Below are positions 44,535-64,000 of a stretch of 64,000 nucleotides of DNA, piece after piece. The notes beneath the pieces were generated by a model, which was given only the letters and a program-made list of their open reading frames with translations, did no database searches and was not told where the DNA came from. Position 1 is the first letter of the stretch. Each line of letters opens with the position of its first letter. Source of the DNA: Streptomyces sp. NBC_01283 (GTDB lineage: Bacteria; Actinomycetota; Actinomycetes; Streptomycetales; Streptomycetaceae); contig NZ_CP108430.1 of NCBI RefSeq assembly GCF_041435335.1, positions 7,970,001 to 8,034,000 on the forward strand, read 5' to 3'. A program made the position numbers and the translations under genes.

Positions 44535-45623
44535 ATGACCGTCAGTTACCTTGCGGCAGCAGCAGCCCCGGCTGCCTTCGATGCCGCGATCGGAAACTTC
44601 TTTGCCGAGCGCAGAGCTGAAGTCGAAGTGCTCGGCGCGGGCTTCGCGGACACGATCGCCGAGCTGGAGAGCTACGTTCTGCGCGGCGGCAAGCGCGTCC
44701 GGCCCGTCTTCGCCTGGCTCGGCTGGATCGGTGCGGGCGGTGACCAGTACGACCCGATCGCCACATCGGTGTTGAGCGCCTGCGCGGGGCTCGAACTGCT
44801 GCACGCGTCGGCCCTGATCCACGACGACATCATCGACGCGTCACGGACGCGCCGCGGCCATCCCGCCGCGCACGTGACGTTCGCCGACCGGCACCGGGCG
44901 GAGCGCTTCTCCGGCGATCCCGACGCCTTCGGCGTGAACACCGCCATCCTGGTCGGGGATCTGGCACATGTGTGGGCCGACAGCATGGTCCGCGCGTCCG
45001 GGTTGCCGACGGACGCGCAGGCCCGGCTCGGGCCGGTGTGGTCCGCGGTGCGTTCGGAGGTCCTGTACGGGCAGCTGCTCGACCTGACCAATCAGGCGGG
45101 CGGCGACGAAGGCATCGAAGCGGCACTGCGCGTCAATCAGTACAAGACGGCCTCGTACACGGTGGAACGCCCCCTGGAGTTCGGTGCCGCGATCGCGGGC
45201 GCCGGGACCGAACTGGTCGCGGCATACCGGGCGTTCGGTGCCGACATCGGCATCGCGTTCCAGCTCCGAGATGACCTGCTGGGCGTCTTCGGCGACCCGG
45301 CGGTGACGGGCAAACCATCGGGCGACGACCTTCGCGAGGGCAAGCGGACGGTGCTGCTCGCGTCGGCACTGGAGCGCGCGGACGAACGCGACCCGGCAGC
45401 GGCGAGGTTTCTCCGCAAGGTGATCGGCACCGACCTCTCCGACGAGGAAGTCGCCTCCGTACGCGCCGTGTTCGTCGACTGCGGTGCCGTGGACCACGTG
45501 GAGCGTCTCATCTCCCTCCGCACCGACAGGGCCATGGCCGTGCTGGACTCGAGTGACGCCACGGCCCCCGCCAGGAATGAGCTCGCCGCGATGGCGGTCA
45601 AGGCGACGCAGCGGGCCAGCTGA
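44535..45623 (+). CDS. Polyprenyl diphosphate synthase (trans, GPP/FPP/GGPP type)
   Basis: A 362-residue head-to-tail prenyl synthase joining IPP to an allylic diphosphate. The first Asp-rich motif is DDIID (97-101) in ELLHASALIHDDIIDASRTR. The second is FQLRDDLLGVFGD. The residues four and five before the first motif are small (Ala, Ser), which in this family tends to allow longer products, so FPP or GGPP is as likely as GPP. Start ATG 44535 after GGGAGAGG. First gene of the coupled mevalonate operon; it shapes the donor for the prenyltransferase at the operon's end. Confidence 0.9.
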   Translation: MTVSYLAAAAAPAAFDAAIGNFFAERRAEVEVLGAGFADTIAELESYVLRGGKRVRPVFAWLGWIGAGGDQYDPIATSVLSACAGLELLHASALIHDDIIDASRTRRGHPAAHVTFADRHRAERFSGDPDAFGVNTAILVGDLAHVWADSMVRASGLPTDAQARLGPVWSAVRSEVLYGQLLDLTNQAGGDEGIEAALRVNQYKTASYTVERPLEFGAAIAGAGTELVAAYRAFGADIGIAFQLRDDLLGVFGDPAVTGKPSGDDLREGKRTVLLASALERADERDPAAARFLRKVIGTDLSDEEVASVRAVFVDCGAVDHVERLISLRTDRAMAVLDSSDATAPARNELAAMAVKATQRAS

Positions 45624-46705
45624 TGGCATCGACGAACGCGCGCACTCGCGCCGGCCACGAATACCCCGCGGGGGGCCCGGCTGGCGGAAGCGGCAGGCCG
45701 GGTGTCGGAAACGCCCACGGCAAGGCCATCCTGCTGGGGGAGCATGCCGTCGTGTACGGCGCTCCGGCACTGGCCATTCCGGTTCCGCAGCTGACGGCCA
45801 CGGCGAAGGCCACCCGCTTTCCGTGCCCGGGCAACGGGGCGGACAGAGTCTCCTTCTCGCTGACGGGATCAGGGTCCGCGGCGGCGACGCCGCTGGCCAC
45901 GGACGGCCTGCGGCGCCTGGTGGCGGAGTTCAAGGAGATGACCGGCGTCACCGGCCGCATGTGCGTCGACGTACTCATCGACTGCTCGATCCCGCAGGGC
46001 CGTGGGCTCGGCTCCAGTGCCGCGTGCGCCCGGGCGGCCGTACTGGCCTTCGCGGATCTCTTCGGCCACCGGCTCGACGCCCAGGAGGTGTTCGATCTCG
46101 TGCAGACGTCGGAGAAGGTGGCGCACGGCAGGGCCAGCGGCATAGACGCCCTCGCCACGGGTTCGACGTCTCCCCTCCTCTTCCGTTCGGGGAGCGCACG
46201 GGAGTTGCCCGTTCCGGTGCCTGGTTCCGGCCCACCACACCCACCGGAACGGAGCGGACACCGCGGCTTCGACGGGGTGTTCGTCATCGGGGACAGCGGT
46301 GTCGGCGGCAGCACCAAGGACGCGGTGAGGATGCTCAGGCGCAAGTTCGAGCGCGACCCGGCAGCTCAGACGGACTTCGTATGCCGGGTGTCGAGCCTGA
46401 CCGACGGTGCCGCGGAGGACCTCGCCCACGGCCGATGCGGCGACTTCGGGGCGCGGATGACCGAGAACCACAGGTTGCTCCGTGACATCGGGCTCAGCAC
46501 GGACGTGATCGATGCGCTGGTCGATGCCGCCGTCGCGGCGGGCGGTCTGGGCGCCAAGATCAGCGGCGGTGGGCTCGGCGGTTGCATGATCGCCCTGGCC
46601 GGAGAGCCACGCCGGGCCCGGGCGGTCGTTCGAAGCCTGCGCGAGACCGGCGCCATACGGACCTGGGTCGTGCCCACGGGGAGGTTTGTGAGTCATGCCG
46701 ATTGA
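45623..46705 (+). CDS. mvaK1: Mevalonate kinase
   Basis: A 360-residue GHMP kinase that phosphorylates mevalonate at C5 using ATP. It has GKAILLGEHAVVYG (33-46), the ATP loop PQGRGLGSSAACARA, and the C-terminal motif KISGGGLGGCMIAL. It has about 30 extra residues at the N-terminus that are low in conservation. ATG 45623 shares its A with the preceding stop (TGATG). The next gene overlaps by 11 bp. The order kinase, decarboxylase, phosphomevalonate kinase is that of Streptomyces mevalonate clusters. Confidence 0.93.
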   Translation: MASTNARTRAGHEYPAGGPAGGSGRPGVGNAHGKAILLGEHAVVYGAPALAIPVPQLTATAKATRFPCPGNGADRVSFSLTGSGSAAATPLATDGLRRLVAEFKEMTGVTGRMCVDVLIDCSIPQGRGLGSSAACARAAVLAFADLFGHRLDAQEVFDLVQTSEKVAHGRASGIDALATGSTSPLLFRSGSARELPVPVPGSGPPHPPERSGHRGFDGVFVIGDSGVGGSTKDAVRMLRRKFERDPAAQTDFVCRVSSLTDGAAEDLAHGRCGDFGARMTENHRLLRDIGLSTDVIDALVDAAVAAGGLGAKISGGGLGGCMIALAGEPRRARAVVRSLRETGAIRTWVVPTGRFVSHAD

Positions 46706-47744
46706 TCGCGAGACGGAGCCGGCCGCTCTGCCCGAGAGTGTTCTCGACGGCGGCGCGACTGCCGTCGCCCATCCGAACATCGCGCTGATCAAGTACTGGG
46801 GCAAGCTCGACGAGCGACTCGTCATCCCGTGCGTCGACAGCCTGTCGATGACCCTGGACATTCTCCCGACGACGACCACCGTTCGGCTCACCCCGGCGGT
46901 CAGGGATGACACGGTAACCCTCGACGGCAAGCCCGCGACGGGCGAACAGAGGCAGCGCATCACCGCCTTCCTCGAGCTGATCCGGGAGATGGCAGGCCGA
47001 AGCGAACGAGCAGCCGTCGACACCCGCAACACGGTCCCCACCGGGGCGGGCCTCGCCTCCTCGGCAAGCGGCTTCGCGGCCCTGGCCCTCGCAGGCGCCG
47101 CCGCATACGGGGTCGGACTCGATCCCACCGCGTTGTCGCGGCTGGCACGGCGCGGATCCGCGTCGGCATCCCGGTCGGTGTTCGGCGGCTTCGCGGTCTG
47201 CCACGCGGGCCGGGGTATCGGCGCGACCGCGGACCTCAGCTCCTACGCGGAGCCGGTGTCCGTGCCGGACTTCGACCCGGCCCTGGTGATCGCGCTGGTC
47301 AACGCCGGCCCCAAGACCGTGTCCAGCCGTGCGGCCATGCGTCGCACGGTGGAGACCTCGCCGCTCTACAAGGCGTGGGCGATCTCGGGCAAGGCCGATC
47401 TGACCGACATGCGGGCGGCGTTGAGCCGCGGCGATCTCGAAGGAGTCGGAGAGATCGCCGAGCGGAACGCCCTCGGGATGCACGCGACGATGCTGGCCGC
47501 GCGACCGGCTGTGCGCTACCTCTCGCCCGCGACCCTGGCCGTGCTCGACAGCGTTCTGCAGCTCAGGGCGGACGGCGTACCGGCCTACGCGACCATGGAC
47601 GCCGGACCGAACGTCAAGGTGCTCTGCCACCACGCGGACGCCGCCCGGGTGGCGGACACGGTGCGCGACGCCGTGCCCGCATGTTCCGCGATCACTGCCC
47701 GGCGCGGCCCGGGCGCTCGTCTCGTCACCGGGGCGGAGCGGTGA
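46695..47744 (+). CDS. mvaD: Diphosphomevalonate decarboxylase
   Basis: A 349-residue GHMP-family enzyme that converts mevalonate diphosphate to IPP with ATP use and loss of CO2. It has the diagnostic NIALIKYWGKLDERLVIP, the loop PTGAGLASSASGFAALALA, and RRGSASASRSVFGGF with the active-site Ser/Arg region. Start ATG 46695 lies 11 bp inside the mevalonate kinase gene. Length is normal for bacterial MvaD. Confidence 0.94.
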   Translation: MPIDRETEPAALPESVLDGGATAVAHPNIALIKYWGKLDERLVIPCVDSLSMTLDILPTTTTVRLTPAVRDDTVTLDGKPATGEQRQRITAFLELIREMAGRSERAAVDTRNTVPTGAGLASSASGFAALALAGAAAYGVGLDPTALSRLARRGSASASRSVFGGFAVCHAGRGIGATADLSSYAEPVSVPDFDPALVIALVNAGPKTVSSRAAMRRTVETSPLYKAWAISGKADLTDMRAALSRGDLEGVGEIAERNALGMHATMLAARPAVRYLSPATLAVLDSVLQLRADGVPAYATMDAGPNVKVLCHHADAARVADTVRDAVPACSAITARRGPGARLVTGAER

Positions 47745-48868
47745 CCGGCCGCAGAACGGTCGTCCGGCATGCGCCCGGCAAGCTGTTCATCGCCGGAGAG
47801 TACGCGGTGCTGGAGCCGGGCCACCCGGCGATCCTGGTCGCGGTCGACCGGCAGATCAGCGTGACCGTGTCGGCAGCCGAAGGCGCCGATGCCGTGATCG
47901 ATTCCGATCTCTGCCCCGGAGAGACACACCTGGGGCGAGGGGACGGCGGGCTCACCGGCCTTGGCGCGGACGACGAACGACAGGCACGGGCCGGGCTCAC
48001 CCATGTCGTGTCGGCGATCGACGTCATCGAAGCGCTGCTGGCCGAGCGGGAGCTGACCGTACCCCCGCTGCACCTCTCGATCAGGAGCGGTCTGCACCAC
48101 GACGGAACCAAGATCGGCCTGGGGTCGAGCGGCGCGGTGACGGTCGCCGTGGTGGACGCCGTGGCCGCGTACTGCGGCATCGATCTCTCGCCCGACGCGC
48201 GCTTTCGGCTCGCGATGCTGGCGACGGCGCGCCTCGCCCCCCAGTCCTCGGGCGGCGACCTCGCCGCGAGCGTCTGGGGCGGCTGGATCGCGTACCAGGC
48301 GCCCGATCGCACTGCCGTGCTCGACATGGCGCGGCGCAGCGGCATCGCGGAGACGCTCCGCGCGCCGTGGCCGGGCTTCGGGCTGCGGCGGTTGCCGCCG
48401 CCCCGCCGGCTCGTCCTGGAGGTGGGCTGGACCGGACGACCGGCCAGCAGCACTTCGTTGGCCGGTCGCCTGGGAGCGGGCGACTGGCGGGGCAGTCCGT
48501 CGCAACGGAACTTCCTGGCCCGCAGCGATGAGTGTGTGGGCGCCTCGATCCGCGCGCTCGGGCAGGGAGACGACGACGAGCTGCTGCGACGGATCCGGGA
48601 CGCGCGCCGGATGCTCGCCGATCTGGACGGCGAAGCCCATCTGGGCATCTTCACCCCCGAGCTGACGGCCCTGTGCGACACCGCCGAGTCCTTCGGCGGT
48701 GCGGCCAAACCGTCGGGGGCGGGGGGCGGCGACTGCGGCATCGCGCTGCTGGATGCCGGGGCGGAGAAGGAGATCGCGCAACTGCGGGAGGGGTGGGGCG
48801 CCGCAGGGGTGCTTCCCCTGCCGGTTCATGTCCAGCCGGCGAAGCCGACACAAGGGAGCGCATCATGA
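47741..48868 (+). CDS. mvaK2: Phosphomevalonate kinase
   Basis: A 375-residue GHMP kinase making mevalonate diphosphate. It has APGKLFIAGEYAVLEPGHPA at the N-terminus, the ATP loop KIGLGSSGAVTVAVVDAV, and SGAGGGDCGIALL near the C-terminus. GTG 47741 overlaps the MvaD stop (GTGA), and its own end overlaps fni (ATGA). The upstream frame extension is a shadow of mvaD. Confidence 0.93.
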   Translation: MTGRRTVVRHAPGKLFIAGEYAVLEPGHPAILVAVDRQISVTVSAAEGADAVIDSDLCPGETHLGRGDGGLTGLGADDERQARAGLTHVVSAIDVIEALLAERELTVPPLHLSIRSGLHHDGTKIGLGSSGAVTVAVVDAVAAYCGIDLSPDARFRLAMLATARLAPQSSGGDLAASVWGGWIAYQAPDRTAVLDMARRSGIAETLRAPWPGFGLRRLPPPRRLVLEVGWTGRPASSTSLAGRLGAGDWRGSPSQRNFLARSDECVGASIRALGQGDDDELLRRIRDARRMLADLDGEAHLGIFTPELTALCDTAESFGGAAKPSGAGGGDCGIALLDAGAEKEIAQLREGWGAAGVLPLPVHVQPAKPTQGSAS

Positions 48869-49956
48869 TCGCGGATCGCAAGGACGACCATGTCCGATTC
48901 GCTGCGGAGCAGCAACGCCACCTCGGGGGACACAATCAGTTCGACGACGTGTCCTTCGTCCATCACGCCCTCGCCGGCATCGACCGGCCCGATGTCTCGC
49001 TGGCCACGCGGTTCGGCGGCATCGACTGGAAGGTGCCGCTGTACATCAACGCGATGACCGGCGGCAGCCCCAAGACGGGCGCCATCAACCGGGATCTGGC
49101 GATCGCCGCCCGCGAGACCGGCGTCGCCATCGCGACAGGGTCCATGAGCGCGTACTTCGCCGACGAATCGGTGGAGGACACCTTCAGCGTGATGCGCCGT
49201 GAGAACCCGGACGGTTTCATCATGGCGAACATCAACGCGAACGCCTCGGTCGAGAAGGCACGACGGGCCGTCGGACTGCTGCGCGCGGACGCCCTGCAGA
49301 TCCACCTCAACTCCATCCAGGAGACGGTGATGCCGGAGGGCGACCGGTCCTTCTCCTTCTGGGGCCCGCAGATCGAAGAGATCGTGGCCGGCGTCGACGT
49401 CCCGGTGATCGTCAAGGAGGTCGGCTTCGGACTGAGCCGCAAGACCGTCCTGATGCTGCAGGAGATGGGCGTGCGCGCGGCCGATGTCGCGGGCCGCGGC
49501 GGCACCAACTTCGCGCGCATCGAGAACGACCGGCGCGATCGTGCCGACTACTCCTACCTCAACGGCTGGGGACAGTCCGCTCCCGCATGCCTGCTGGACG
49601 TCCACGGTGCGGGGCTCCCGGTGCTCGCCTCCGGCGGTGTCCGCAATCCGCTCGACGTGGCGCGCGGACTGGCCCTCGGCGCCGCGGGCGTCGGAGCGTC
49701 CGGGCAGTTCCTGAAGACGGTGCTCGACGGCGGCGTGCCCGCTCTGATCTCGCAGATCTCCGCGTGGCTCGATCAACTGGAAGCCCTGATGACCGTACTG
49801 GGCGCGCACACCCCGGCCGACCTGACCCGCTGCGACGTGCTCGTCCGGGGCGACCTGCGGACGTTCTGCGTCGACCGGGGCATCGAGACCCGTCGACTGG
49901 CCACCCGCTCCAGCTCCTACAGCACCACTCACGAGACGATTGGAAACACCCGATGA
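48865..49956 (+). CDS. fni: Type II isopentenyl-diphosphate isomerase
   Basis: A 363-residue FMN- and NAD(P)H-dependent enzyme that interconverts IPP and DMAPP. It has MIADRKDDHVRFAAEQQ at the start, INAMTGGSPKTGAINRDLA, the flavin-site segments GSMSAYF and NANASVEKA, QIHLNSIQETVMPEGDR, and DVAGRGGTNFARIENDR. Type II (not the Nudix type I) is usual in mevalonate-bearing streptomycetes. ATG 48865, coupled on both sides by 4-bp overlaps. Confidence 0.95.
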   Translation: MIADRKDDHVRFAAEQQRHLGGHNQFDDVSFVHHALAGIDRPDVSLATRFGGIDWKVPLYINAMTGGSPKTGAINRDLAIAARETGVAIATGSMSAYFADESVEDTFSVMRRENPDGFIMANINANASVEKARRAVGLLRADALQIHLNSIQETVMPEGDRSFSFWGPQIEEIVAGVDVPVIVKEVGFGLSRKTVLMLQEMGVRAADVAGRGGTNFARIENDRRDRADYSYLNGWGQSAPACLLDVHGAGLPVLASGGVRNPLDVARGLALGAAGVGASGQFLKTVLDGGVPALISQISAWLDQLEALMTVLGAHTPADLTRCDVLVRGDLRTFCVDRGIETRRLATRSSSYSTTHETIGNTR

Positions 49957-51017
49957 ACGACACTCACGCGATCGCCGGCGTTCCCATGAGATGGGTGGGG
50001 CCCCTGCGCATCTCGGGAAACACGGCGACGACCGAGACGGACGTGCCGCTCGCGACCTACGAGTCGCCCCTGTGGCCCTCCGTCCGACGGGGCGCCAAGC
50101 TGTCGATGCTGGTCGAGAACGGCATCGTCGCCACGCTGGTCGACGACCGCATGACGCGCTCGGTCTACGTCAAGGCGGACGACGCGCAGACCGCATACCT
50201 GGCGGCACTGGAGGTGGACGCCCGTCTCGACGAACTCCGCGAGATCGTGCGCAAGTGCAGCAGATTCACCGAACTGATCGGGTTCCGTCACGAGATCACC
50301 GCCAACCTGCTGTTCCTCCGGTTCGAGTTCACCACCGGTGATGCATCGGGACACAACATGGCGACGCTGGCCGCCGATGCGCTCCTGACACACATCCTGC
50401 AGACCATTCCGGGCATCACGTACGGCTCGATCTCGGGCAACTACTGCACCGACAAGAAGGCCACCGCGATCAACGGCATCCTCGGGCGCGGCAAGAACGT
50501 GGTCACGGAACTGCTGGTGCCGCGCGCCGTCGTCCACGAGGTGCTGCACACGTCGGCGGCCGCGATAGCGGAACTGAACGTGCACAAGAACATGATCGGT
50601 ACCGCGCTCGCCGGCGGAATCCGCTCGGCCAACGCGCACTACGCGAACATGCTGCTCGCGTTCTATCTGGCCACGGGCCAGGACGCGGCCAACATCGTCG
50701 AGGGCTCCCAGGGCTTCACCGTGGCCGAGGACCGCGACGGCGACCTCTACTTCTCCTGCACCCTGCCCAACCTGATCATGGGGACGGTCGGAAACGGCAA
50801 GGGCCTCCAGTTCGTCGAGGAGAACCTGACCCGGCTCGGCTGCCGGGCGGCACGCGAACCCGGCGAGAACGCGCGCCGCCTCGCGGTCATAGCGGCCGCG
50901 ACGGTGCTGTGTGGCGAACTGTCGCTCCTGGCGGCACAGACGAACCCGGGCGAGCTGATGCGGGCCCACGTCCACTTGGAGCGCAAGAACGAGACCACGA
51001 AGGTCGGAGGTCAGTGA
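49953..51017 (+). CDS. mvaA: HMG-CoA reductase, class I
   Basis: A 354-residue soluble enzyme reducing HMG-CoA to mevalonate with NADPH; no membrane anchor. Diagnostic segments are FEFTTGDASGHNMATLAADA, GNYCTDKKATAINGILGRG, and AGGIRSANAHYANMLLAFYL. Start ATG 49953 overlaps fni; the stop overlaps the HMG-CoA synthase start. It catalyses the committed step of the pathway encoded here. Confidence 0.95.
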   Translation: MNDTHAIAGVPMRWVGPLRISGNTATTETDVPLATYESPLWPSVRRGAKLSMLVENGIVATLVDDRMTRSVYVKADDAQTAYLAALEVDARLDELREIVRKCSRFTELIGFRHEITANLLFLRFEFTTGDASGHNMATLAADALLTHILQTIPGITYGSISGNYCTDKKATAINGILGRGKNVVTELLVPRAVVHEVLHTSAAAIAELNVHKNMIGTALAGGIRSANAHYANMLLAFYLATGQDAANIVEGSQGFTVAEDRDGDLYFSCTLPNLIMGTVGNGKGLQFVEENLTRLGCRAAREPGENARRLAVIAAATVLCGELSLLAAQTNPGELMRAHVHLERKNETTKVGGQ

Positions 51018-52265: not shown

Positions 52266-53156
52266 ATGTCCGAAACCGCTGAGGTGGCAGAGCTCTATGC
52301 GGCCATCGAGGAATCCGCGCGCCTGCTGGAGGTTCCCTGCGCACGGGACACGGTCCTGCCCGTCCTGACCGCGTACGGGGACGCACTCGCGCACGACGCG
52401 ACCGTGGTCGCCTTCAGGGTGGCGACCGCCGTGCGCCACGTGGGCGAGCTCGACTGCCGCTTCACGACGTACCCGAAGGACCAGGACCCCTATGCCGTCG
52501 CGCTGTCGAACGGCCTTACCGCGACGACGGAGCATCCGGTGGGCGCGGTGCTCTCGGACGTCCAGGGACGCTGCCCCGTCGACAGCTACGGCATCGACTT
52601 CGGAGTGGTCGGCGGGTTCAAGAAGGTCTACGCGTTCTTCACCCCCGATGACCTGCAGGAGCTGTCAAAGATCGCCGACCTTCCGTCCATGCCGCCCGGC
52701 CTGGCCGCGAACGCCGACTTCTTCTCCCGCCATGGCCTGGACGACCGGGTCGGCGTGATCGGTGTCGACTACCCGCACCGCACGGTGAACATCTACTTCA
52801 ACGACGTACCGACCGCATGCTTCGAGCCGAAGACCATCGCGTCGATGCTCGCCGACCTCGGTATGCCGGACCCCAGCGAGCAGTTGCTGGGACTCGGCCG
52901 GGAAGCCTTCGGACTCTACGTGACCTTGAACTGGGAGTCCTCGGCGATCGAGCGGATCTGCTTTGCGGTGACCACCACGGATCTGGCGACGCTCCCGGTC
53001 AGGATAGAGCCGGAGATCGAGCAGTTCGTGCGCAGCGTTCCCTATGGCGGAGCCGACCGGAAGTTCGTCTACGGCGTGGCCTCGTCCCCCGAAGGGGAGT
53101 ACTTCAAGATCGAGTCCCACTACAAGTGGCAGCCGGGGGCGATGGACTTCATCTGA
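52266..53156 (+). CDS. NphB-type aromatic prenyltransferase (ABBA/PT barrel)
   Basis: A 296-residue soluble enzyme that attaches a prenyl group to an aromatic ring. The whole length aligns by eye with NphB: ELYAAIEESARLLEVPCARD at the start, VGGFKKVYAFFTPDDLQELS, LPSMPPGLAANADFFSRHGL, VNIYFNDVP, YVTLNWESSAIERICFAV, and KFVYGVASSPEGEYFKIESH near the end. Asp63 corresponds to the Mg2+-binding Asp62 of NphB. Start ATG 52266 after TTGGAGG. It is 64 bp after mvaS, as last gene of the operon. The acceptor is presumably made by the rightward genes from 57.6 kb. Confidence 0.93.
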   Translation: MSETAEVAELYAAIEESARLLEVPCARDTVLPVLTAYGDALAHDATVVAFRVATAVRHVGELDCRFTTYPKDQDPYAVALSNGLTATTEHPVGAVLSDVQGRCPVDSYGIDFGVVGGFKKVYAFFTPDDLQELSKIADLPSMPPGLAANADFFSRHGLDDRVGVIGVDYPHRTVNIYFNDVPTACFEPKTIASMLADLGMPDPSEQLLGLGREAFGLYVTLNWESSAIERICFAVTTTDLATLPVRIEPEIEQFVRSVPYGGADRKFVYGVASSPEGEYFKIESHYKWQPGAMDFI

Positions 53157-57420: not shown

Positions 57421-57557
57421 TTCGCTCCCCTTTGCGTGAGATCAGATCACCCCTCTGGATACTGCGGCGGCGAAAAGCCTCGCACAATGACGTGAAGCCG
57501 CCATCGCGTGTTTCCGGTAACGCGGCACGGCATGGCGTAAATATCTGAATGCCGTGC

Positions 57558-57603
57558 ACTACTCACGCAGGTAGTGGGCGGGCAGGTGCGGCGCAATTAC
57601 TGT
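57558..57603 (+). promoter_or_regulatory. Cluster operator and promoter of the aminohydroxybenzoate genes
   Basis: The dyad ACTACTCACGCAGGTAGT (57558-57575) is followed by GGGCGGG and TACTGT (57598-57603, likely -10), extending to TACTGTCGTG. Spacing and bases match the promoter at 44283-44328. It lies between the divergent PhzE-like and aspartate kinase genes, and TGGCGTAAAT (57533-57542) to its left is also shared. The aspartate kinase start follows about 27 bp after the -10. Confidence 0.7.
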
Positions 57604-57629
57604 CGTGGCATACCGGGTCGACGAGAGCG

Positions 57630-58913
57630 GTGAAAACGACTGTGGATGTGCTGGTCCAAAAATATGGCGGTACCTCTTTGCAGACGCTCGACTGCGTTCG
57701 TCACGCCGCCCTGCGCATCGCGGAGGCGCGGCGTCGCGGATCGTCGATGGCCGTGGTGGTCTCCGCGCGCGGCGACAGAACGGATGCTCTGCTGCGCCTT
57801 GCGGCAGACGTGGGCGCCTCGGCCTCGTCCCGGGAACTGGATCAGTTGCTGGCCGTGGGCGAGTGCGAGTCGGCGGCGCTGATGGCTCTGGCGCTGAACG
57901 GCCTCGGCGTGCCGGCGGTGTCGCTGACCGGTCATCAGGCCGGGATCAGGACCACCGACCGGCATGGCGACGCACTCATCGCGGGGATCGACCCGGCCCG
58001 GGTGAGCGCGGCCATGGACGGTGGCGAGGTCGCCGTGATCACCGGCTTCCAGGGGGTCGACCAGGCCGGGGACGTCGCCACGCTCGGGCGGGGCGGCTCG
58101 GACACGACCGCCGTGGCGCTCGCGGCTCGGCTCGGGGCCTCCGCCTGCGAGATCTACACCGACGTGGACGGAGTGTTCAGCGCAGATCCCCGCATCCTGC
58201 CCGCAGCTCGCTGCCTGCCGTGGATCGACCCCGGCGTCATGGCGGAGATGGCATTCGCGGGCGCTCGGGTGCTGCACACCCGCTGCATCGAACTGGCCGC
58301 CATGGAAGGGGTCGAAGTGCACGTTCGGAACGCGTCGACGCAGGCACCCGGAACCACCGTCGCGGGACGCCAGGACAGTCGCCCGCTGGAGACCCGGCGG
58401 GCTGTCATGGCAGTGACGCACGACACCGATGTCGCCCGCGTCCTGGTGCACTGCCGCGACATCCGCCGGGACCTGGCCCCCGACGTGTTCGACGCGCTGG
58501 CCGCCGAGGGAACGGTGGTGGATCTGGTTGCCAGGTCCGGGCCGCACGAGAGCGAGTTCCGCATGGGGTTCACGATCCGCCGCAGCCAGGCCGGCCCGGT
58601 GCGGGCCGCGCTGCACGAGCTGACGGCGGCCTTCGACGGAGGTGTGCACTTCGACGAGAACGTCGGCAAGGTCTCGGTGGTCGGGATGGGGCTGCTCAGC
58701 CGCCCGGAGTACACGGCCAGGCTCATGGCGGCGCTCGCCGCGGCCGGCATTCCCACGAGCTGGATGTCCACGTCCCAGATGAGGCTGTCCGTGATCGTGC
58801 CTCAAGAACGCACCGTCGAAGCGGTCGAGACCCTGCATCACGAGTTCCAGCTCGACCGGGATGAGCCGACAGGCGTCGCGTCCGCGAACTCCGGCCGTTC
58901 CGCATCCGTCTGA
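57630..58913 (+). CDS. Aspartate kinase (cluster-specific copy)
   Basis: A 427-residue enzyme phosphorylating aspartate toward aspartate semialdehyde. It has KYGGTS (11-16), SARGDRTDAL, TLGRGGSDTTAVALAARLG, and EIYTDVDGVFSADPRI. Two C-terminal ACT domains follow (VARVLVHCRDIRRDLAPDVF; KVSVVGMGLLSRPEYTARLM), which normally bind Lys/Thr. A dedicated copy next to griI/griH homologues supplies aspartate semialdehyde for 3-amino-4-hydroxybenzoate. Start GTG 57630 is favoured, given the promoter; GTG 57642 is possible. No ribosome-binding site is obvious. Confidence 0.9.
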   Translation: MKTTVDVLVQKYGGTSLQTLDCVRHAALRIAEARRRGSSMAVVVSARGDRTDALLRLAADVGASASSRELDQLLAVGECESAALMALALNGLGVPAVSLTGHQAGIRTTDRHGDALIAGIDPARVSAAMDGGEVAVITGFQGVDQAGDVATLGRGGSDTTAVALAARLGASACEIYTDVDGVFSADPRILPAARCLPWIDPGVMAEMAFAGARVLHTRCIELAAMEGVEVHVRNASTQAPGTTVAGRQDSRPLETRRAVMAVTHDTDVARVLVHCRDIRRDLAPDVFDALAAEGTVVDLVARSGPHESEFRMGFTIRRSQAGPVRAALHELTAAFDGGVHFDENVGKVSVVGMGLLSRPEYTARLMAALAAAGIPTSWMSTSQMRLSVIVPQERTVEAVETLHHEFQLDRDEPTGVASANSGRSASV

Positions 58914-58928: not shown

Positions 58929-59756
58929 GTGGCTGCTGTACACAACGCTTCGTTCGCTCGCGATCTCCGCCTGCGACGTCTGTTCCGCCATGGCGACGGG
59001 CGCCTGCTCGTGGTGCCGCTCGATCATTCCGTCACCGACGGGCCACTGCCTCGCGGCGGTCTGAACTCCCTGCTCGGGGAGCTCGCCGGCACGGGCGTGG
59101 ACGCCGTGGTGCTGCACAAGGGCAGTCTCCGGCACGTGGATCACGGCTGGTTCGGTGACATGTCGTTGATCATGCATCTGAATGCGAGCACGCGGCACGC
59201 CCCGGATCCGGACGCCAAATATCTCGTCGCCCACGTGGAAGAGGCGCTGCGGCTGGGAGCCGATGCCGTCAGCGTGCACGTGAACCTGGGATCGCACCAA
59301 GAGGCCCGGCAGGTCGCGGATCTGGCGGCCGTGGCGGGGGAGTGCGAGCGCTGGAACGTCCCGCTGCTCGCCATGGTGTACGCCCGCGGACCGCAGATCA
59401 GTGACTCGCGGGCCCCGGAGCTCGTGGCGCACGCCGCGTCCCTGGCGGCCGACCTCGGCGCCGACATCGTGAAGACCGACTACGCGGGCACACCCGAGCG
59501 GATGGCCGAGGTGGTGGCGGCCTGTCCGATCCCCGTCATCGTGGCCGGCGGCCCGCGCTCCGCCGAGACCGACGTCGTACTGGCCCATGTGTCCGACGCA
59601 CTGCAGGGCGGCGCGTCCGGTGTGGCCATGGGCCGCAACGTCTTCCAGGCCGACCGGCCCGGCTGGATGGCGGCGTCGATCGCCCGGCTGGTGCACGAAT
59701 CACGGCGCCTCCCTGACCGGGACGGCGTCGACAACCGGCTTGCCCTTACGTCCTGA
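58929..59756 (+). CDS. griI: GriI-like aldolase (class I, DhnA family)
   Basis: A 275-residue TIM-barrel aldolase. Schiff-base Lys182 lies in ADIVKTDYAG, with likely acid Tyr151 in AMVYARG and phosphate-binding VIVAGGPRS and GVAMGRNVFQ. The N-terminal VVPLDHSVTDGPLPRGG is typical of the family. In grixazone biosynthesis GriI joins aspartate semialdehyde to dihydroxyacetone phosphate, giving a C7 amino-keto phosphate. The order aspartate kinase, griI, griH is strongly diagnostic. Start GTG 58929, 15 bp after the kinase stop. Confidence 0.9.
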   Translation: MAAVHNASFARDLRLRRLFRHGDGRLLVVPLDHSVTDGPLPRGGLNSLLGELAGTGVDAVVLHKGSLRHVDHGWFGDMSLIMHLNASTRHAPDPDAKYLVAHVEEALRLGADAVSVHVNLGSHQEARQVADLAAVAGECERWNVPLLAMVYARGPQISDSRAPELVAHAASLAADLGADIVKTDYAGTPERMAEVVAACPIPVIVAGGPRSAETDVVLAHVSDALQGGASGVAMGRNVFQADRPGWMAASIARLVHESRRLPDRDGVDNRLALTS

Positions 59757-59785: not shown

Positions 59786-60889
59786 GTGAAGCTGTGCTGG
59801 CTGGACATCCGTAGCGCGAACGGAGCCAAGGAAGCCATCGTCGAGGAAGCCGTCCACCAGCGGGTGGACGCCATCGTCGCGGCCGATCCGGCTGACCTGG
59901 AGCCGCTTCCCCCGACGGTGAAGAAGGTCCTGTTCCCGCAGAACCAGCCGCTGCCGGAGAAGCTGGAACCCGCTGACCTGGTCATAGTCGACCCGGCCCG
60001 CCACGGGGAGCCCGCCGAACTGGCGCATCAGTACCCGGACGTGGAGTTCGGCCGCTACGTGGAGATCACGGACGCCGACAGTCTCGAGGACGCCTGCCGC
60101 GCCGCGCGCCTCGACAAGTGGAGCCTCCTCTACTTCCGGGACCCCACCAAGATCCCGCTGGAGATCGTGCTGGCCGCCGCGGCCGGAGCGGAGGGCAGCA
60201 TCATCACGCAGGTGGCCGACGTCGAGGAGGGAGAGATCGTCTTCGGCGTCCTCGAACACGGCTCCGACGGCGTGATGCTCGCCCCCCGCACGGTGGGGGA
60301 GGCGACCGAACTCAAGGCCGCCGCGGTCAGCAAGGCGGCGGACCTGCCGCTGGTGGAGCTTGAGGTCACCGGGATCCGGCGTGTGGGGATGGGGGAGCGT
60401 GCGTGCGTCGACACCTGCACGAACTTCCGTCTCGACGAAGGCATTCTCGTCGGCTCGCACTCCACCGGCATGATCCTTTGCTGCAGCGAGACGCACCCGC
60501 TGCCGTACATGCCGACACGGCCGTTCCGGGTCAATGCCGGTGCGCTGCACTCGTACACCCTGTCGGCCGAGGGGCGGACCAACTACCTCAGTGAACTCGT
60601 CTCCGGCGGCCGGGTGCTGGCTGTCGACTCGCAGGGCAAGTCGCGGGTGGTCACCGTGGGCAGGGTCAAGATCGAGACGCGTCCGCTGCTCGCGATCGAC
60701 CTGGTCGCGGCCTCAGGGGTGAAGGTCAACCTCATCGTCCAGGACGACTGGCATGTACGTGTGCTCGGTCCGGGCGGCACGGTCCTGAACGTCACGGACC
60801 TGACGCCGGGCACGAAGGTGCTCGGCCACCTGCCGGTCGAGCAGCGGCACGTCGGCTACCCGATCGACGAGTTCTGCATCGAGAAGTGA
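59786..60889 (+). CDS. griH: GriH-like 3-amino-4-hydroxybenzoate synthase (DHQ synthase II family)
   Basis: A 367-residue protein of the archaeal-type 3-dehydroquinate synthase II family. It has LCWLDIRSANGAKEAIVEEA at the start, ELEVTGIRRVGMGERACVDT, GILVGSHSTGMILCCSETHP, RPFRVNAGALHSYTL and TKVLGHLPVEQRHVG near the end. GriH cyclises and aromatises the GriI product to 3-amino-4-hydroxybenzoic acid. The archaeal paralogue makes dehydroquinate with NAD, but the aspartate-kinase neighbour and the bacterial host favour the GriH role. Start GTG 59786 after AAGGAGA. Confidence 0.9.
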   Translation: MKLCWLDIRSANGAKEAIVEEAVHQRVDAIVAADPADLEPLPPTVKKVLFPQNQPLPEKLEPADLVIVDPARHGEPAELAHQYPDVEFGRYVEITDADSLEDACRAARLDKWSLLYFRDPTKIPLEIVLAAAAGAEGSIITQVADVEEGEIVFGVLEHGSDGVMLAPRTVGEATELKAAAVSKAADLPLVELEVTGIRRVGMGERACVDTCTNFRLDEGILVGSHSTGMILCCSETHPLPYMPTRPFRVNAGALHSYTLSAEGRTNYLSELVSGGRVLAVDSQGKSRVVTVGRVKIETRPLLAIDLVAASGVKVNLIVQDDWHVRVLGPGGTVLNVTDLTPGTKVLGHLPVEQRHVGYPIDEFCIEK

Positions 60890-61686
60890 GCGACGGCAGC
60901 GAGGCGAGGCGAGCGGTGGCCGCGATGACCGCTCGACCCGTGCTGGATTTCCATGTACGTCTGGCTCCCCGGCCCGGGGCCGGGGAGCGGCTCCTGTCGG
61001 CCATGGACGACAGCGGGCTGGAGCGGGCCGTGGTGTGCGCCGGCGGCACCATCGACCTGGACCGCCTGGCCCGCCAGCTCGTCGAGGGCGGGTACGTCGA
61101 GACCGATGCCGACAACGACACGGTGCTGAAGACCTGCGCGGACACGGACGGGCGCCTGGTGCCGTTCTACTTCGCCAACCCGCACCGCCCGAGCGAGGAA
61201 TACCGTTCCAGGGCCGCCGAGTTCCGCGGCCTGGAGGTCTCGCCCGCCGTGCACGGCATCGGTCTGGCCGACCCCCGTGTCGAGGAACTGGTCGGTGTGG
61301 CGGCCGAGTTCGGCCACCCGGTCTATGTGGTGTGCCTGTCCCGGCCCGGGGCGGGCGTCGCCGACCTGGTCGGTGTGGCCCGCCGGTTCCCGCAGGTGAA
61401 CTTCGTGCTCGGGCACAGCGGCATCGGCAACATCGACTTCCACGCGCTCACCCTGATCCGGGACGAGCTCAACATCGTGCTGGAGACCTCCGGCGGCTAC
61501 ACCTGCGTGGCCGAGGCGGCGGTGAGCCGCCTCGGGGCCGAGCGCGTGGTGTTCGGCTCCGAGTATCCGCTCCAGCACCCGGCCGTGGAGCTTGCCAAGT
61601 TCCAGGTGCTGCGGCTGCCGCCCGAGCAGTGGCGGCAGATCGCCTGGGACAACGCGCACCGACTCTTGGGAGAGGAACAGCAGTGA
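60886..61686 (+). CDS. Amidohydrolase-2-family enzyme with altered metal motifs
   Basis: A 266-residue TIM-barrel protein of the amidohydrolase-2 superfamily. Residues near the start read LDFHVRLAPRPG, where the usual HxH has Arg in place of the second His. The middle has HPVYVVCLSRPG where a His is usual, then NFVLGHSGIGNIDFHALT. The end has VVFGSEYPLQHP, with Glu for the usual Asp. So only part of the metal site is standard. It overlaps griH (GTGA) and the ligase gene (GTGA). In nataxazole-type clusters an amidohydrolase closes benzoxazoles together with a ligase; this pair could do the same. Function is inferred. Confidence 0.75.
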   Translation: MSDGSEARRAVAAMTARPVLDFHVRLAPRPGAGERLLSAMDDSGLERAVVCAGGTIDLDRLARQLVEGGYVETDADNDTVLKTCADTDGRLVPFYFANPHRPSEEYRSRAAEFRGLEVSPAVHGIGLADPRVEELVGVAAEFGHPVYVVCLSRPGAGVADLVGVARRFPQVNFVLGHSGIGNIDFHALTLIRDELNIVLETSGGYTCVAEAAVSRLGAERVVFGSEYPLQHPAVELAKFQVLRLPPEQWRQIAWDNAHRLLGEEQQ

Positions 61687-62999
61687 CCGACCCCCACGCG
61701 AGCCTGCCTCGACTCGGCCAGTGGAACGGCCCGGAGGAGCTGCGGCTCCTGCAGGAGAAACAGCTCCAGCAAACCGTCACCTGGGCCGCCCGCTCACCCT
61801 TCTACCGTCGGCGGCTGAACGGCACAGCCCTGCCCACGACCCCCTCCGACCTCGCCGCGCTGCCGTTGACCACCAAGCAGGACCTGCGCGACAACTACCC
61901 CTTCGGCATGCTCGCCGTCCCGAAGGAACGGCTGGCCACCTACCACGAGTCGAGCGGGACCGCCGGGCACCCCACCCCCTCGTACTACACGCAAGAGGAC
62001 TGGGCCGACCTGGCGGAGCGCTTCGCCCGCAAGTGGATAGGGATCTCCGGCGCGGACACCTTCCTGGTCCGCACGCCGTACGCGCTGCTTCTGACGGGAC
62101 ATCTCGCGCATGCCGCCGGCCGTCTGCACGGCGCCACGGTGGTGCCCGGTGACAACCGGTCGCTGGCCATGCCGTACGCCCGCGTGGTCCGCGTCATGCA
62201 CGACCTGGACGTATCGCTGACCTGGTCGGTACCGACCGAATGCCTCATCTGGGCCGCCGCGGCGAAAGCGGCCGGGCACCGGCCGGACACCGACTTCCCC
62301 GGACTGCGTGCGCTGTTCGTCGGCGGAGAGCCGCTCACCTCCGCCCGCCGCCGCCGGATCAGCCGGCTGTGGGGGGTACCGGTGATCGAGGAGTACGGCT
62401 CCACGGAGACCGGCAGCCTCGCCGGGGAGTGCGAGCACGGCCGGATGCACCTGTGGGCCGACCGGGCGCTGTTCGAGGTGTACGACCCGCGGACGGGCAC
62501 GGTCAGCGCGGACGGCGAGGGCGAACTCGTGGTCACGCCCCTGTTCCGCGAGGCGATGCCCCTGCTGCGCTACAACCTTGAGGACAACGTGTCGGTCTCC
62601 TACGACGACTGCGCCTGCGGGTGGGGCCTGCCCACGGTCCAGGTGCTCGGCAGAGCGGCGTTCGGCCACCAGGTCGGCGGCGCGACGATCACCCAGCACA
62701 AGCTCGAGGAGCTCGTCTTCTCCCTGCCGGACTCCTACGAGGTGTTGTTCTGGCGGGCGAGGGCGGAACCGACCGTACTGCGCATCGAGATCGAGGTGCC
62801 CGAGGAGCACCGGGCCGCCGCCCAGGCGGAACTGGAGGCCTCGGTGCGCGCCGTGCTCGGCGTCAGCAGCGAGGTCACCGGCCTGGCCCCGGGGACTCTG
62901 ATACCCCACGAGGCGCTGACCGCCATGCCTGATGTGGTGAAACCACGCAGCCTCTTCGGGCCCGACGAGGACTGGGGCAAAGCGCTCCTCTACTACTGA
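61683..62999 (+). CDS. PaaK-like AMP-forming ligase
   Basis: A 438-residue adenylating enzyme of the phenylacetate-CoA ligase group. It has ATYHESSGTAGHPTPSYYTQ (phosphate loop), LRALFVGGEPLTSARRRRIS, VIEEYGSTETGSLAGEC, GELVVTPLFREAMPLLRYN, and the C-terminal lid with GATITQHKLEELV. It should activate an aromatic carboxylic acid, most simply the aminohydroxybenzoate made next door, and pass it to CoA, an amine or a hydroxyl. Start GTG 61683 overlaps the amidohydrolase stop. The tight coupling suggests the two act in sequence. Confidence 0.88.
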   Translation: MTDPHASLPRLGQWNGPEELRLLQEKQLQQTVTWAARSPFYRRRLNGTALPTTPSDLAALPLTTKQDLRDNYPFGMLAVPKERLATYHESSGTAGHPTPSYYTQEDWADLAERFARKWIGISGADTFLVRTPYALLLTGHLAHAAGRLHGATVVPGDNRSLAMPYARVVRVMHDLDVSLTWSVPTECLIWAAAAKAAGHRPDTDFPGLRALFVGGEPLTSARRRRISRLWGVPVIEEYGSTETGSLAGECEHGRMHLWADRALFEVYDPRTGTVSADGEGELVVTPLFREAMPLLRYNLEDNVSVSYDDCACGWGLPTVQVLGRAAFGHQVGGATITQHKLEELVFSLPDSYEVLFWRARAEPTVLRIEIEVPEEHRAAAQAELEASVRAVLGVSSEVTGLAPGTLIPHEALTAMPDVVKPRSLFGPDEDWGKALLYY

Positions 63000-63012
63000 G
63001 GAGGACGACGAC

Positions 63013-64000
63013 ATGCCGCAGATGAGGGTGGCCGTGGCCGGCGGCGGAATCGCCGGCCTCGTCCTGGCCGTCGCGCTCCGCCGGGCCGGCATCGACTGCC
63101 ACGTCTATGAGCAGGCGGAACATCTGACCGAGGTCGGCGCAGGGGTCCAGGTGGCGCCCAACGCCAGCCGGCTTCTCCGCCGCCTCGGCCTGCGAGACCG
63201 CTTGCGCAGCATCGCTGTCGCACCGCAGGCGATCGAGATGCGCCGCTGGGACGACGGCACGCTGCTGCAGCGGACTCCGCTGGGTGAACCGTGCCGCCGC
63301 CGCTTCGGAGCGCCGTACTACACCGTGCACCGTGCGGACCTGCACAGCAGCCTGCTCGCGCTCCTTCCGCCCGACCGCATCCACCTCGGGGCCCGTTGTG
63401 CCGCCGTGTCGCAGGACCAGGACGCGGCCCGGCTGCACCTGTCGGACGGCACGGTCGTCGCTGCGGACCTCGTCGTGGGCGCCGACGGCATTCACTCGCT
63501 CGTGCGGGAGCAGATCGTGGCCGACCGGCCGCGCTATTCCGGGCAGACGATCTACCGGGGTCTGGTTCCGGCCGAGCGGGTGCGCCACCTGCTCGACGAG
63601 CCGTGTGTGCGGCTGTGGTTCGGACCGGACCAGCACTGCGTGTGCTACCCGGTGTCAGCCGGACGGCAGGTGAGTTTCGGCGCGACCGTGGCCGCATCGG
63701 ACTGGCGGGAGGAGTCCTGGTCGGCGCGGGGTGACGTCGCCGAACTGGCAGCCGCGTACAAGGGCTGGCACCCGGATGTCGTGCGGCTCATCGGTGCGGC
63801 GGACACGGTCAGCAGATGGGCGCTGCACGATCGCGACAGCATCGACCGGCTCAGTTCGGGGCGGGTGACCGTCATCGGTGACGCCGCGCACCCGATGCTG
63901 CCGTTCCAGGCACAGGGCGCGAACCAGGCGGTCGAGGACGCCGTCGTACTCGCTGTCTGTCTGGCCGGGGCGGGATCGGGCGGCCTGGAAGGGGCGTTGC
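63013..64000 (+). CDS. FAD-dependent aromatic monooxygenase, cut by window edge
   Basis: The first 329 residues of a group A flavin monooxygenase. It has the FAD-binding GGGIAGLVLAVALRRAG (10-26), the LVVGADGIHSLVREQI block, and the second FAD motif GDAAHPMLPFQAQGANQAVE near residue 290. The closest look is to salicylate- or 3-hydroxybenzoate-hydroxylases, which hydroxylate, sometimes with loss of CO2. An action on an aminohydroxybenzoate intermediate is plausible. Start ATG 63013 after GAGGAGGA. The C-terminus lies beyond the right edge. Confidence 0.9.
   Translation, partial: MPQMRVAVAGGGIAGLVLAVALRRAGIDCHVYEQAEHLTEVGAGVQVAPNASRLLRRLGLRDRLRSIAVAPQAIEMRRWDDGTLLQRTPLGEPCRRRFGAPYYTVHRADLHSSLLALLPPDRIHLGARCAAVSQDQDAARLHLSDGTVVAADLVVGADGIHSLVREQIVADRPRYSGQTIYRGLVPAERVRHLLDEPCVRLWFGPDQHCVCYPVSAGRQVSFGATVAASDWREESWSARGDVAELAAAYKGWHPDVVRLIGAADTVSRWALHDRDSIDRLSSGRVTVIGDAAHPMLPFQAQGANQAVEDAVVLAVCLAGAGSGGLEGAL

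What the first reader, a model, noticed from the sequence alone, without database searches (positions are those of the whole stretch)
44535..64000. Probable new cluster for a prenylated aminohydroxybenzoate, possibly a benzoxazole
In one place stand a full mevalonate pathway with an NphB-type prenyltransferase, aspartate kinase-GriI-GriH (3-amino-4-hydroxybenzoate), a PhzE-type synthase, a coupled amidohydrolase plus PaaK-like ligase, and an FAD monooxygenase. A ligase and an amidohydrolase close the benzoxazole ring in nataxazole-type pathways, and 3-amino-4-hydroxybenzoate-based benzoxazoles are known from anaerobes. Adding a prenyltransferase and its own isoprenoid supply would be a new combination as far as I know.
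Basis: partly seen in the sequence, partly recalled or inferred. Interest (0 to 1): 0.85.

Follow-up and report, generated by a model that had tools for sequence, protein, structure and literature searches.

The report
Diazepinomicin-type gene cluster in Streptomyces
This stretch of a Streptomyces-like genome closely matches, gene by gene, the known set of genes behind diazepinomicin, an antitumour compound with a farnesyl tail, so it is not a new kind of pathway, although it travels with one enzyme-like protein whose role I could not find described.

Summary
With the flank right of 64 kb, it matches a Micromonospora cluster gene by gene. That cluster's DNA has zero-mismatch sites for the gene-matching parts of four primers published for a diazepinomicin producer (PMC3871700). 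The window's prenyltransferase is about 70% identical to the Micromonospora enzyme and 61% to an S. griseoflavus protein taken to be Ssrg_00986, which farnesylates dibenzodiazepinone. The product is most likely diazepinomicin or a close analogue, not a benzoxazole.

The building-block reading holds in part. GriI/GriH plus a dedicated aspartate kinase point to 3-amino-4-hydroxybenzoate for ring B. PhzE, a PhzD-type isochorismatase and a DhbA-type dehydrogenase (the last two beyond the edge) give 3-hydroxyanthranilate for ring A. The ligase is a NatL2 relative (66%); the amidohydrolase lacks NatAM's zinc-ligand motifs.

Unexpected: a haloperoxidase homologue with the vanadate-binding His replaced by Asn accompanies the cluster (15 of 16 genomes; 14 of 14 copies covering the site). 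Role unknown. New member of a known kind; moderate interest.

The parts
39317..41347 (+). LuxR-family regulator (LAL2), left edge of the conserved stretch
   Evidence: GerE domain; relative at >=57% in 14 of 15 related clusters
41356..44151 (-). large ATP-binding LuxR regulator (LAL)
   Evidence: AAA_16 + GerE; relative in 15 of 15 related clusters
44535..45623 (+). polyprenyl (probably farnesyl) diphosphate synthase
   Evidence: PF00348; best NCBIfam model is a farnesyl/geranyl diphosphate synthase, 414 bits, below its cut-off of 600; 11 of 15 clusters
45623..46705 (+). mevalonate kinase
   Evidence: GHMP kinase domains; which kinase is which from operon context; 10 of 15 clusters
46695..47744 (+). 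diphosphomevalonate decarboxylase
   Evidence: PF22700, PF18376; 10 of 15 clusters
47741..48868 (+). phosphomevalonate kinase
   Evidence: GHMP kinase domains; assignment from operon context; 10 of 15 clusters
48865..49956 (+). type 2 isopentenyl diphosphate isomerase
   Evidence: PF01070 FMN-binding domain; assignment from operon context; 7 of 15 clusters
49953..51017 (+). HMG-CoA reductase
   Evidence: PF00368; 10 of 15 clusters
51035..52201 (+). HMG-CoA synthase (start uncertain)
   Evidence: TIGR01835 513 bits, above cut-off; 6 of 15 clusters
52266..53156 (+). ABBA prenyltransferase, DzmP orthologue, 296 aa
   Evidence: PF11468; 69% to P0048, 61% to S. griseoflavus P0101, 70% to G1067; both Arg of Mg-independent ABBA enzymes present
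53193..53855 (-). response regulator
53852..54985 (-). sensor histidine kinase (orf12-like)
   Evidence: relative at >=71% in 12 of 15 clusters, 35-38% in the other three
55073..55474 (-). DoxX-family membrane protein, not conserved (1 of 15)
55474..57420 (-). PhzE-type aminodeoxyisochorismate synthase
   Evidence: best PDB match 3r74, 658 bits; 11 of 15 clusters
57549..58913 (+). aspartate kinase, cluster copy
   Evidence: NF005154 399 bits, above cut-off 376; 15 of 15 clusters
58929..59756 (+). GriI-type aldolase (3,4-AHBA step 1)
   Evidence: BagB/FevI model 382 bits, cut-off 500; 14 of 15 clusters at >=81%
59786..60889 (+). GriH-type 3,4-AHBA synthase
   Evidence: BagC/FevH model 606 bits, cut-off 750; 14 of 15 clusters at >=87%
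60886..61686 (+). decarboxylase-like Amidohydro_2 protein with altered metal-site motifs
   Evidence: PF04909; H23-x-R25, H177, E226 invariant in 10 aligned sequences; Foldseek top hits are decarboxylases (model pLDDT 67.5)
61704..62999 (+). NatL2-type PaaK-like ligase (start approximate)
   Evidence: 283 of 430 residues identical to 6siw_A; 14 of 16 NatL2 residues checked are conserved
63013..64000 (+). FAD monooxygenase FMO1 (ends at 64212, right of the window)
   Evidence: PF01494; best NCBIfam 3-hydroxybenzoate 6-monooxygenase, below cut-off

Best explanation
The region is a diazepinomicin-type biosynthetic gene cluster, running from about 39.3 kb to about 75.2 kb in window numbering, and most likely makes diazepinomicin or a close farnesylated dibenzodiazepinone. 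Inferred route: the mevalonate genes and the polyprenyl synthase supply farnesyl diphosphate. PhzE, the PhzD-type isochorismatase and the DhbA-type dehydrogenase turn chorismate into 3-hydroxyanthranilate (ring A). Aspartate kinase, GriI and GriH make 3-amino-4-hydroxybenzoate (ring B). The NatL2-type ligase adenylates 3-hydroxyanthranilate and joins it to 3-amino-4-hydroxybenzoate. The two FAD monooxygenases then replace the ring-B carboxylate by a hydroxyl and add a second hydroxyl, giving an aminoquinone whose carbonyl condenses with the ring-A amine to close the seven-membered ring. The DzmP-type enzyme farnesylates the amide nitrogen. Shown elsewhere by experiment: the farnesylation step for DzmP and Ssrg_00986, and by feeding the origin of ring A from 3-hydroxyanthranilate (both as told in PMC3871700). 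Shown here: gene content, order and conserved residues. The ligation order, the ring-B route and ring closure are inference.
For: Of 30 query genes, 28 have a relative at >=50% identity in G1067, in nearly the same order. G1067 has 0 mismatches to the gene-matching parts of dzmP_F and dzmP_R and to the degenerate orf10_F and orf12_R of PMC3871700; the window has 4, 4 and 3 mismatches to the first three. The window PT is 70% identical to the G1067 enzyme and 61% to P0101 of S. griseoflavus. PMC3871700 (abstract, passages and one section) reports that DzmP and Ssrg_00986 farnesylate dibenzodiazepinone and places orf11 between HMG-CoA synthase and a sensor gene, as in G1067; in the window the PT likewise follows HMG-CoA synthase and precedes the two-component pair. 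The PhzE/PhzD/MxcC-like route to 3-hydroxyanthranilate named there is present: 3r74 658 bits; a probable isochorismatase and two PhzD chains 236-247 bits; TIGR04316 354 bits above cut-off 300. AK is in 15 of 15 and GriI, GriH, ligase, FMO1, SDR1, SDR2 and FMO2 in 14 of 15 clusters (the 15th contig is cut). The ligase keeps NatL2's 3-HAA contact Glu235, the second-pocket Thr128, Thr135, Arg156 and Trp178, and the zinc ligands.
Against: No product was measured here, and S. griseoflavus made no diazepinomicin in culture (PMC3871700), so such clusters may be silent or make analogues. McAlpine et al. (not held; known only through PMC3871700) proposed 3-amino-5-hydroxybenzoate for ring B. GriI and GriH score below the curated cut-offs of the Bag/Fev models, which are narrow 'exception' models. 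The RR/HK pair and the helix-turn-helix gene are turned round relative to G1067, which also has about 4 kb between RR and PhzE that I did not annotate. The link of G1067 to a proven producer rests on primer sites and on the prenyltransferase, not on the deposited cluster sequence, which I could not fetch. In NatL2 the pocket residues Ala211 and Ala212 are Ala; here both are Gly. The roles of amidohydrolase, SDR2, DUF6081, symporter and haloperoxidase homologue are not explained.
Confidence: 0.87

Rival explanations
1. The cluster makes a farnesylated benzoxazole: the ligase joins 3-hydroxyanthranilate to 3-amino-4-hydroxybenzoate and the amidohydrolase closes a benzoxazole ring, as NatL2 and NatAM do.
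For: The ligase is 66% identical to 6siw_A (NatL2 by numbering) and keeps most of its checked contacts. 3,4-AHBA, an o-aminophenol, is the benzoxazole precursor in closoxazole biosynthesis (PMC12118335, passages).
Against: The amidohydrolase is 266 aa against about 494 in NatAM, gave only a weak decarboxylase match in the PDB at E <= 0.01, and lacks the HxH, third His and Asp motifs (compared by motif, no NatAM alignment was made). The collinear Micromonospora cluster belongs to the diazepinomicin family. The two FAD monooxygenases and the N-farnesylating type of prenyltransferase are unexplained by it.
Confidence: 0.05
2. A close analogue is made rather than diazepinomicin itself: same core, but with a changed tail length or oxidation pattern. 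(This lies inside the best explanation, which covers both.)
For: Prenyltransferases are 64-75% and haloperoxidase homologues 59-78% identical to the window's across clusters, and regulators, DoxX and symporter vary. PMC3871700 itself says the exact structures in Streptomyces, including chain length, remain to be elucidated.
Against: The core enzymes are shared with the Micromonospora cluster, and Ssrg_00986, whose likely record P0101 is 61% identical to the window PT, has the same activity as DzmP (PMC3871700).
Confidence: 0.25
3. A prenylated phenazine cluster in which PhzE and the prenyltransferase belong together and the 3,4-AHBA genes are a neighbour.
For: PhzE and PhzD-type proteins and an ABBA prenyltransferase of the phenol/phenazine branch are present.
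Against: No PhzF, PhzG or PhzA/B-like protein among the ORFs scanned between 44.5 and 76.6 kb. A DhbA-type dehydrogenase points the PhzD product to 3-hydroxyanthranilate. GriI/GriH and the ligase stay with the prenyltransferase in four loci that lack PhzE.
Confidence: 0.02

Closest known systems
Diazepinomicin (ECO-4601, BU-4664L) cluster of Micromonospora 046Eco-11 / RV115
   Same: Same gene set and nearly the same order, judged through G1067, which carries the published primer sites
   Different: Relative to G1067: two-component genes and HTH gene turned round; an extra DoxX gene; prenyltransferase about 70% identical; host is Streptomyces (inferred)
Streptomyces griseoflavus Tu4000 diazepinomicin-like cluster (Ssrg_00986)
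   Same: Prenyltransferase P0101 61% identical; reported to hold orthologues of all genes thought essential (PMC3871700); a His-less haloperoxidase homologue, P0152, lies on a contig of the same length
   Different: Gene order not compared here; silent in the published cultures
Nataxazole pathway (NatL2 ligase, NatAM amidohydrolase)
   Same: Ligase is a NatL2 relative (66%, 14 of 16 checked residues kept)
   Different: Amidohydrolase is a decarboxylase-like Amidohydro_2 protein without NatAM's zinc-ligand motifs; no benzoxazole expected
MAR4 orphan cluster HIBGC2 (prenyltransferase clade PTC13, 'haloperoxidase', product unknown; PMC4650096, passages)
   Same: The S. griseoflavus enzyme is sister to PTC13; S. 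aculeolatus and CNH099 loci found here carry the same core genes plus the haloperoxidase homologue
   Different: Those loci lack the polyprenyl synthase, mevalonate, PhzE, isochorismatase and DAHP synthase genes that the window has
NapH1/NapH3 vanadium haloperoxidase family
   Same: Right-flank protein at 73758-75248 matches four solved members with 358-469 bits
   Different: Vanadate-anchoring His replaced by Asn (which residue is the axial ligand is recalled; that it is a His is in PMC8407142)

Membership tests
Diazepinomicin-type cluster | DzmP-type farnesyltransferase next to HMG-CoA synthase and a two-component sensor | tested here: met
   PT 61-70% to DzmP-clade enzymes; neighbours HMGS and RR/HK
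Diazepinomicin-type cluster | PhzE, PhzD and dihydroxybenzoate-dehydrogenase-like genes for 3-hydroxyanthranilate | tested here: met
Diazepinomicin-type cluster | Collinear core (AK-GriI-GriH-AmdH-Lig-FMO1-SDR1-IsoC-SDR2 ... FMO2-DAHPS) as in G1067 | tested here: met
Diazepinomicin-type cluster | Produces diazepinomicin | not testable with these tools
   needs expression and mass spectrometry
ABBA prenyltransferase, Mg-independent DzmP branch | Two phosphate-binding Arg (51 and 64 in PMC3871700; 51 and 65 in the numbering here) | tested here: met
   R51 and R65 invariant in the 7-sequence alignment
GriI/GriH 3,4-AHBA pathway | ADH-synthase-like aldolase paired with DHQS-II-like synthase, with aspartate kinase | tested here: met
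   best NCBIfam models are BagB/FevI and BagC/FevH, though below their narrow cut-offs
NatL2-type ligase | C-terminal extension, Cys3His zinc site, 3-HAA contact residues | tested here: met
   full-length alignment; Cys248, His254, Cys308, Cys310, Glu235, Thr239, Lys418 kept; Ala211/Ala212 changed to Gly
NatAM-type condensing amidohydrolase | Zinc ligands His75, His77, His253 and Asp345, catalytic His290 | tested here: not met
   HxR in place of HxH, no His seen at the third position, Glu for Asp; the His290-like H177 is kept (equivalence by motif, no NatAM alignment made)
Prenylated phenazine cluster | PhzF, PhzG and PhzA/B beside PhzD/PhzE | tested here: not met
   none among ORFs scanned to 76.6 kb
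Vanadium haloperoxidase (right-flank gene) | Axial His that binds vanadate | tested here: not met
   Asn at that column in 14 of 14 cluster copies that cover it, the window's included

The most novel reading that the evidence does not exclude
Diazepinomicin-type clusters depend on a conserved, vanadium-free member of the haloperoxidase fold. This clade has lost the vanadate-binding histidine (mostly Asn instead) and keeps most of the Arg/Ser/Arg pocket, while the pocket Lys is gone in about a quarter of members. It would catalyse a non-halogenating step, such as closing the diazepine ring or rearranging the farnesylated product, in the way NapH3 catalyses a rearrangement. Together with ring B coming from 3-amino-4-hydroxybenzoate through a NatL2-type ligation, this would replace the published pathway hypothesis.
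Probability: 0.27. Interest if true: 0.62.

Novelty: new member of a known kind. Interest (0 to 1): 0.36.

Why it matters
It removes a supposedly new pathway from the list and ties it to a compound that reached a phase II trial (PMC3871700). The comparison also sharpens three open points about that compound. Ring B is more likely built from 3-amino-4-hydroxybenzoate than from 3-amino-5-hydroxybenzoate, the amide-forming enzyme is probably the NatL2-type ligase, and a haloperoxidase-fold protein without its metal ligand travels with the cluster. It also suggests a product class for the orphan MAR4 cluster HIBGC2. All are testable with standard gene removal and feeding experiments.

Tried and rejected
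Rejected readings: benzoxazole (amidohydrolase not recognisably NatAM-like; known cluster collinear) and phenazine (no further phz genes among the ORFs scanned, DhbA-type dehydrogenase present). The AlphaFold model of the haloperoxidase homologue was weak (mean pLDDT 61.4) and was not searched. The amidohydrolase model was modest (67.5); its Foldseek hits count only as fold-level support. GriH against PDB sequences gave no match at E <= 0.001. No Rfam search was made; no tRNA was found. McAlpine et al. 2008 is not held, so the original cluster annotation was not seen. Papers: PMC3871700 abstract, passages and one section; PMC7204872 passages and one section; PMC12118335, PMC5867642, PMC4650096, PMC10897937, PMC4684245, PMC8407142 and PMC12871659 passages only; others only as search listings. 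That the His-less haloperoxidase homologue of these clusters and the NatL2 link were not found in print rests (held open-access library only): 0 papers with diazepinomicin plus haloperoxidase, 0 with diazepinomicin plus NatL2, 0 with DUF6851, and 4 with NapH3, vanadium and haloperoxidase, of which two were looked into. One search found 3 papers with diazepinomicin, biosynthesis and 3-amino-4-hydroxybenzo-; by their listed titles and abstracts none treats this pathway, and none was opened.

Limits of counts. The column headed 'n>=45%' counts matches at 50% or more. In one search twelve further matches had no locus and their His site was not read. After checking, the odds of the novel case were lowered from 0.30 to 0.27 because the pocket Lys is lost in 18 of 67 non-His proteins and both Lys and Arg in the Micromonospora copy P0190.


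Full report
What was checked. The window is G000:C1:7970001-8034000, so the right flank could be read (L005; window coordinate = L005 coordinate + 60000).

Right flank. After FMO1 (63013-64212) come an SDR (64209-64988), an isochorismatase (start uncertain, about 65030-65700), a second SDR (65760-66491), DUF6081 on the minus strand (66484-67410), a sodium:solute symporter (67551-69443), a second FAD monooxygenase with a Rng_hyd_C domain (69459-71102), a class II DAHP synthase (71109-72383), a protein with weak helix-turn-helix matches on the minus strand (72441-73649) and a vanadium-haloperoxidase homologue (73758-75248). The first SDR passes the curated cut-off for 2,3-dihydro-2,3-dihydroxybenzoate dehydrogenase (354 against 300 bits). 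The isochorismatase's best solved relatives are a probable isochorismatase (3r77) and PhzD (1nf9, 1nf8), and the PhzE-type protein's is 3r74. Together they spell the chorismate-to-3-hydroxyanthranilate route that PMC3871700 attributes to the diazepinomicin cluster.

Identity of the cluster. The prenyltransferase found 516 relatives at E <= 1e-30, of which 120 were listed. Among them are P0101 of S. griseoflavus, the species of the tested Ssrg_00986, 61% identical and 295 aa as published; and P0048 of Micromonospora chalcea, 69% identical, whose ends match those encoded by the published dzmP primers. P0048 and P0101 are 60.8% identical, against 61.4% published for DzmP and Ssrg_00986. In a sample of 300 genomes of the family of G592, 11 had a match at E <= 1e-90; the best, G1067, is 96% identical to P0048. 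A phylum-wide sample of 396 gave 2, the window's own genome and G592 (56%). G1067's DNA has 0 mismatches to the gene-matching parts of dzmP_F and dzmP_R and to orf10_F and orf12_R. Its cluster reads LAL2, LAL, FPPS, MVK, MVD, PMK, IDI2, HMGR, HMGS, PT, HK, RR, a stretch of about 4 kb not annotated, PhzE, AK, GriI, GriH, AmdH, ligase, FMO1, SDR1, IsoC, SDR2, DUF6081, SSF, FMO2, DAHPS, HTH gene, haloperoxidase homologue. The window has the same order, except that RR/HK and the HTH gene are turned round and a DoxX gene is added.

Related clusters. Of 16 places fetched, one (G1077b) holds only a prenyltransferase and was dropped, leaving 15 clusters. AK is found in 15 and GriI, GriH, AmdH, ligase, FMO1, SDR1, SDR2, SSF and FMO2 in 14; the exception, G152, sits on a 20 kb contig that ends after AK. 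Supply genes vary more: FPPS and PhzE are in 11 of 15, IsoC, DAHPS, MVK, MVD, PMK and HMGR in 10, IDI2 in 7 and HMGS in 6. In S. carminius (G356) the symporter and haloperoxidase homologue lie between PhzE and the prenyltransferase.

How it probably works. Diazepinomicin's structure is recalled, not fetched: a dibenzodiazepinone whose ring B carries the farnesylated amide nitrogen, the bridging nitrogen and two hydroxyls. Mapped on 3-amino-4-hydroxybenzoate, the amine gives the amide nitrogen, the 4-hydroxyl carbon takes the bridging nitrogen, the carboxyl carbon gives one hydroxyl by oxidative decarboxylation and C5 gives the other. Two oxidations are needed and two FAD monooxygenases are present in 14 of 15 clusters. 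PMC3871700 reports that McAlpine et al. suggested 3-amino-5-hydroxybenzoate; the genes seen here argue for the 3,4 isomer. The ligase is identical to 6siw_A at 283 of 430 residues. Residue numbers given for NatL2 in PMC7204872 fall on the right residues of that chain, which is how I take it to be NatL2. Of 16 residues checked, 14 are kept and Ala211 and Ala212 are Gly. The kept Arg156, which in NatL2 orients the carboxylate of the second substrate, suggests that the acceptor still has its carboxylate when it is joined, so ligation may come before decarboxylation. This order is inference.

The amidohydrolase. It belongs to Amidohydro_2. Ten aligned sequences keep H23-x-R25, H144, H177 and E226. 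NatAM uses His75, His77, His253, His290 and Asp345 (PMC7204872). The fold search with a modest model returned dihydroxybenzoate and carboxyvanillate decarboxylases and ACMSD among its best hits. I read it as a protein of decarboxylase-like fold with a changed metal site. A part in ring closure or decarboxylation is possible; benzoxazole formation in the NatAM manner is not supported.

The haloperoxidase homologue. Its four best solved relatives are two vanadium-dependent haloperoxidases, NapH3 and NapH1. The His of their VHF/AHF motif, recalled as the axial vanadate ligand, is Asn in the window. Of 16 genomes with the cluster, 15 have an orthologue at about 60% identity or more, inside the cluster or within about 13 kb of it; G152, with the cut contig, has only a 45% match. 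Fourteen of the 15, the window's included, cover the site and all 14 have Asn; the G837 match stops at residue 394. Of 15 paralogues read in these genomes, 14 keep His; 12 more matches were not read. Of 16 further loci from the Streptomyces sample, 15 keep His. The two exceptions are VNF (L122, L134). In a tree of 118 of the 120 listed proteins, 67 non-His rows and one His row form one side of a branch with support 100. In the non-His group Arg348 is kept in 66 of 67, Ser397 in 61 and Arg460 in 58, but Lys341 only in 49, and position 399 varies; the Micromonospora protein P0190 has lost both Lys341 and Arg348. That weakens the idea of one conserved catalytic pocket. In 392 Streptomyces genomes, a prenyltransferase at 64% or more was found in 5 and this orthologue at 67% or more in 4 of those 5 and in none of the other 387 (three candidates scored per genome; the handles of the two samples agree). 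The link to the cluster is strong; the function is not known. G852 and G868 also carry a second, His-bearing homologue inside the cluster.

Variants. In S. aculeolatus, Streptomyces sp. CNH099, G105 and G047 the stretches held (36 of the 37-39 kb around the core) lack FPPS, the mevalonate genes, PhzE, isochorismatase and DAHP synthase; all four genomes have more distant PhzE copies elsewhere (54-57%), as do other cluster genomes, so supply from other loci is possible. G152 also lacks the mevalonate genes between FPPS and the prenyltransferase. These loci look like HIBGC2 of PMC4650096 (prenyltransferase clade PTC13, next to the S. griseoflavus enzyme; 'haloperoxidase'; product unknown). The correspondence is inferred from strains and content, not from locus tags.

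Verdict. A well-preserved member of a published cluster family, already known from Streptomyces (PMC3871700). The remaining interest lies in the ring-B route, the NatL2-type ligase and the His-less haloperoxidase homologue.

Noticed in passing
L005:13758-15248 (window numbering 73758-75248): NapH-type haloperoxidase homologue with the vanadate-binding His replaced by Asn, conserved with the cluster; its relatives form a clade of their own.
   Followed up: yes
L051-L058 (S. aculeolatus, CNH099, G105, G047): MAR4-type loci keep the diazepinomicin core but lack FPPS, mevalonate, PhzE, isochorismatase and DAHP synthase genes; they may be the orphan HIBGC2 of PMC4650096.
   Followed up: partly
L082:14048-15538 and L084:12300-13799: A second haloperoxidase homologue with the His kept sits inside the cluster between SDR2 and the isochorismatase in G852 and G868.
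   Followed up: partly
L108 (G837): The haloperoxidase homologue near this cluster matches only residues 2-394 of the query; the C-terminal part is missing or changed.
   Followed up: no
L088/L089 (G1077): A second prenyltransferase, 61% identical, with no other query gene found in the 40 kb read.
   Followed up: no
L122 and L134: Distant haloperoxidase paralogues in two Streptomyces genomes with VNF instead of VHF, possibly a separate loss of the His.
   Followed up: no
window 33031-36513: A 1160 aa protein joining a trypsin-like domain, an nSTAND1 NTPase, a histidine kinase and a receiver domain.
   Followed up: no
window 36652-38835: MMPL-family transporter just left of the cluster regulators; possible exporter, not tested for conservation.
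   Followed up: no
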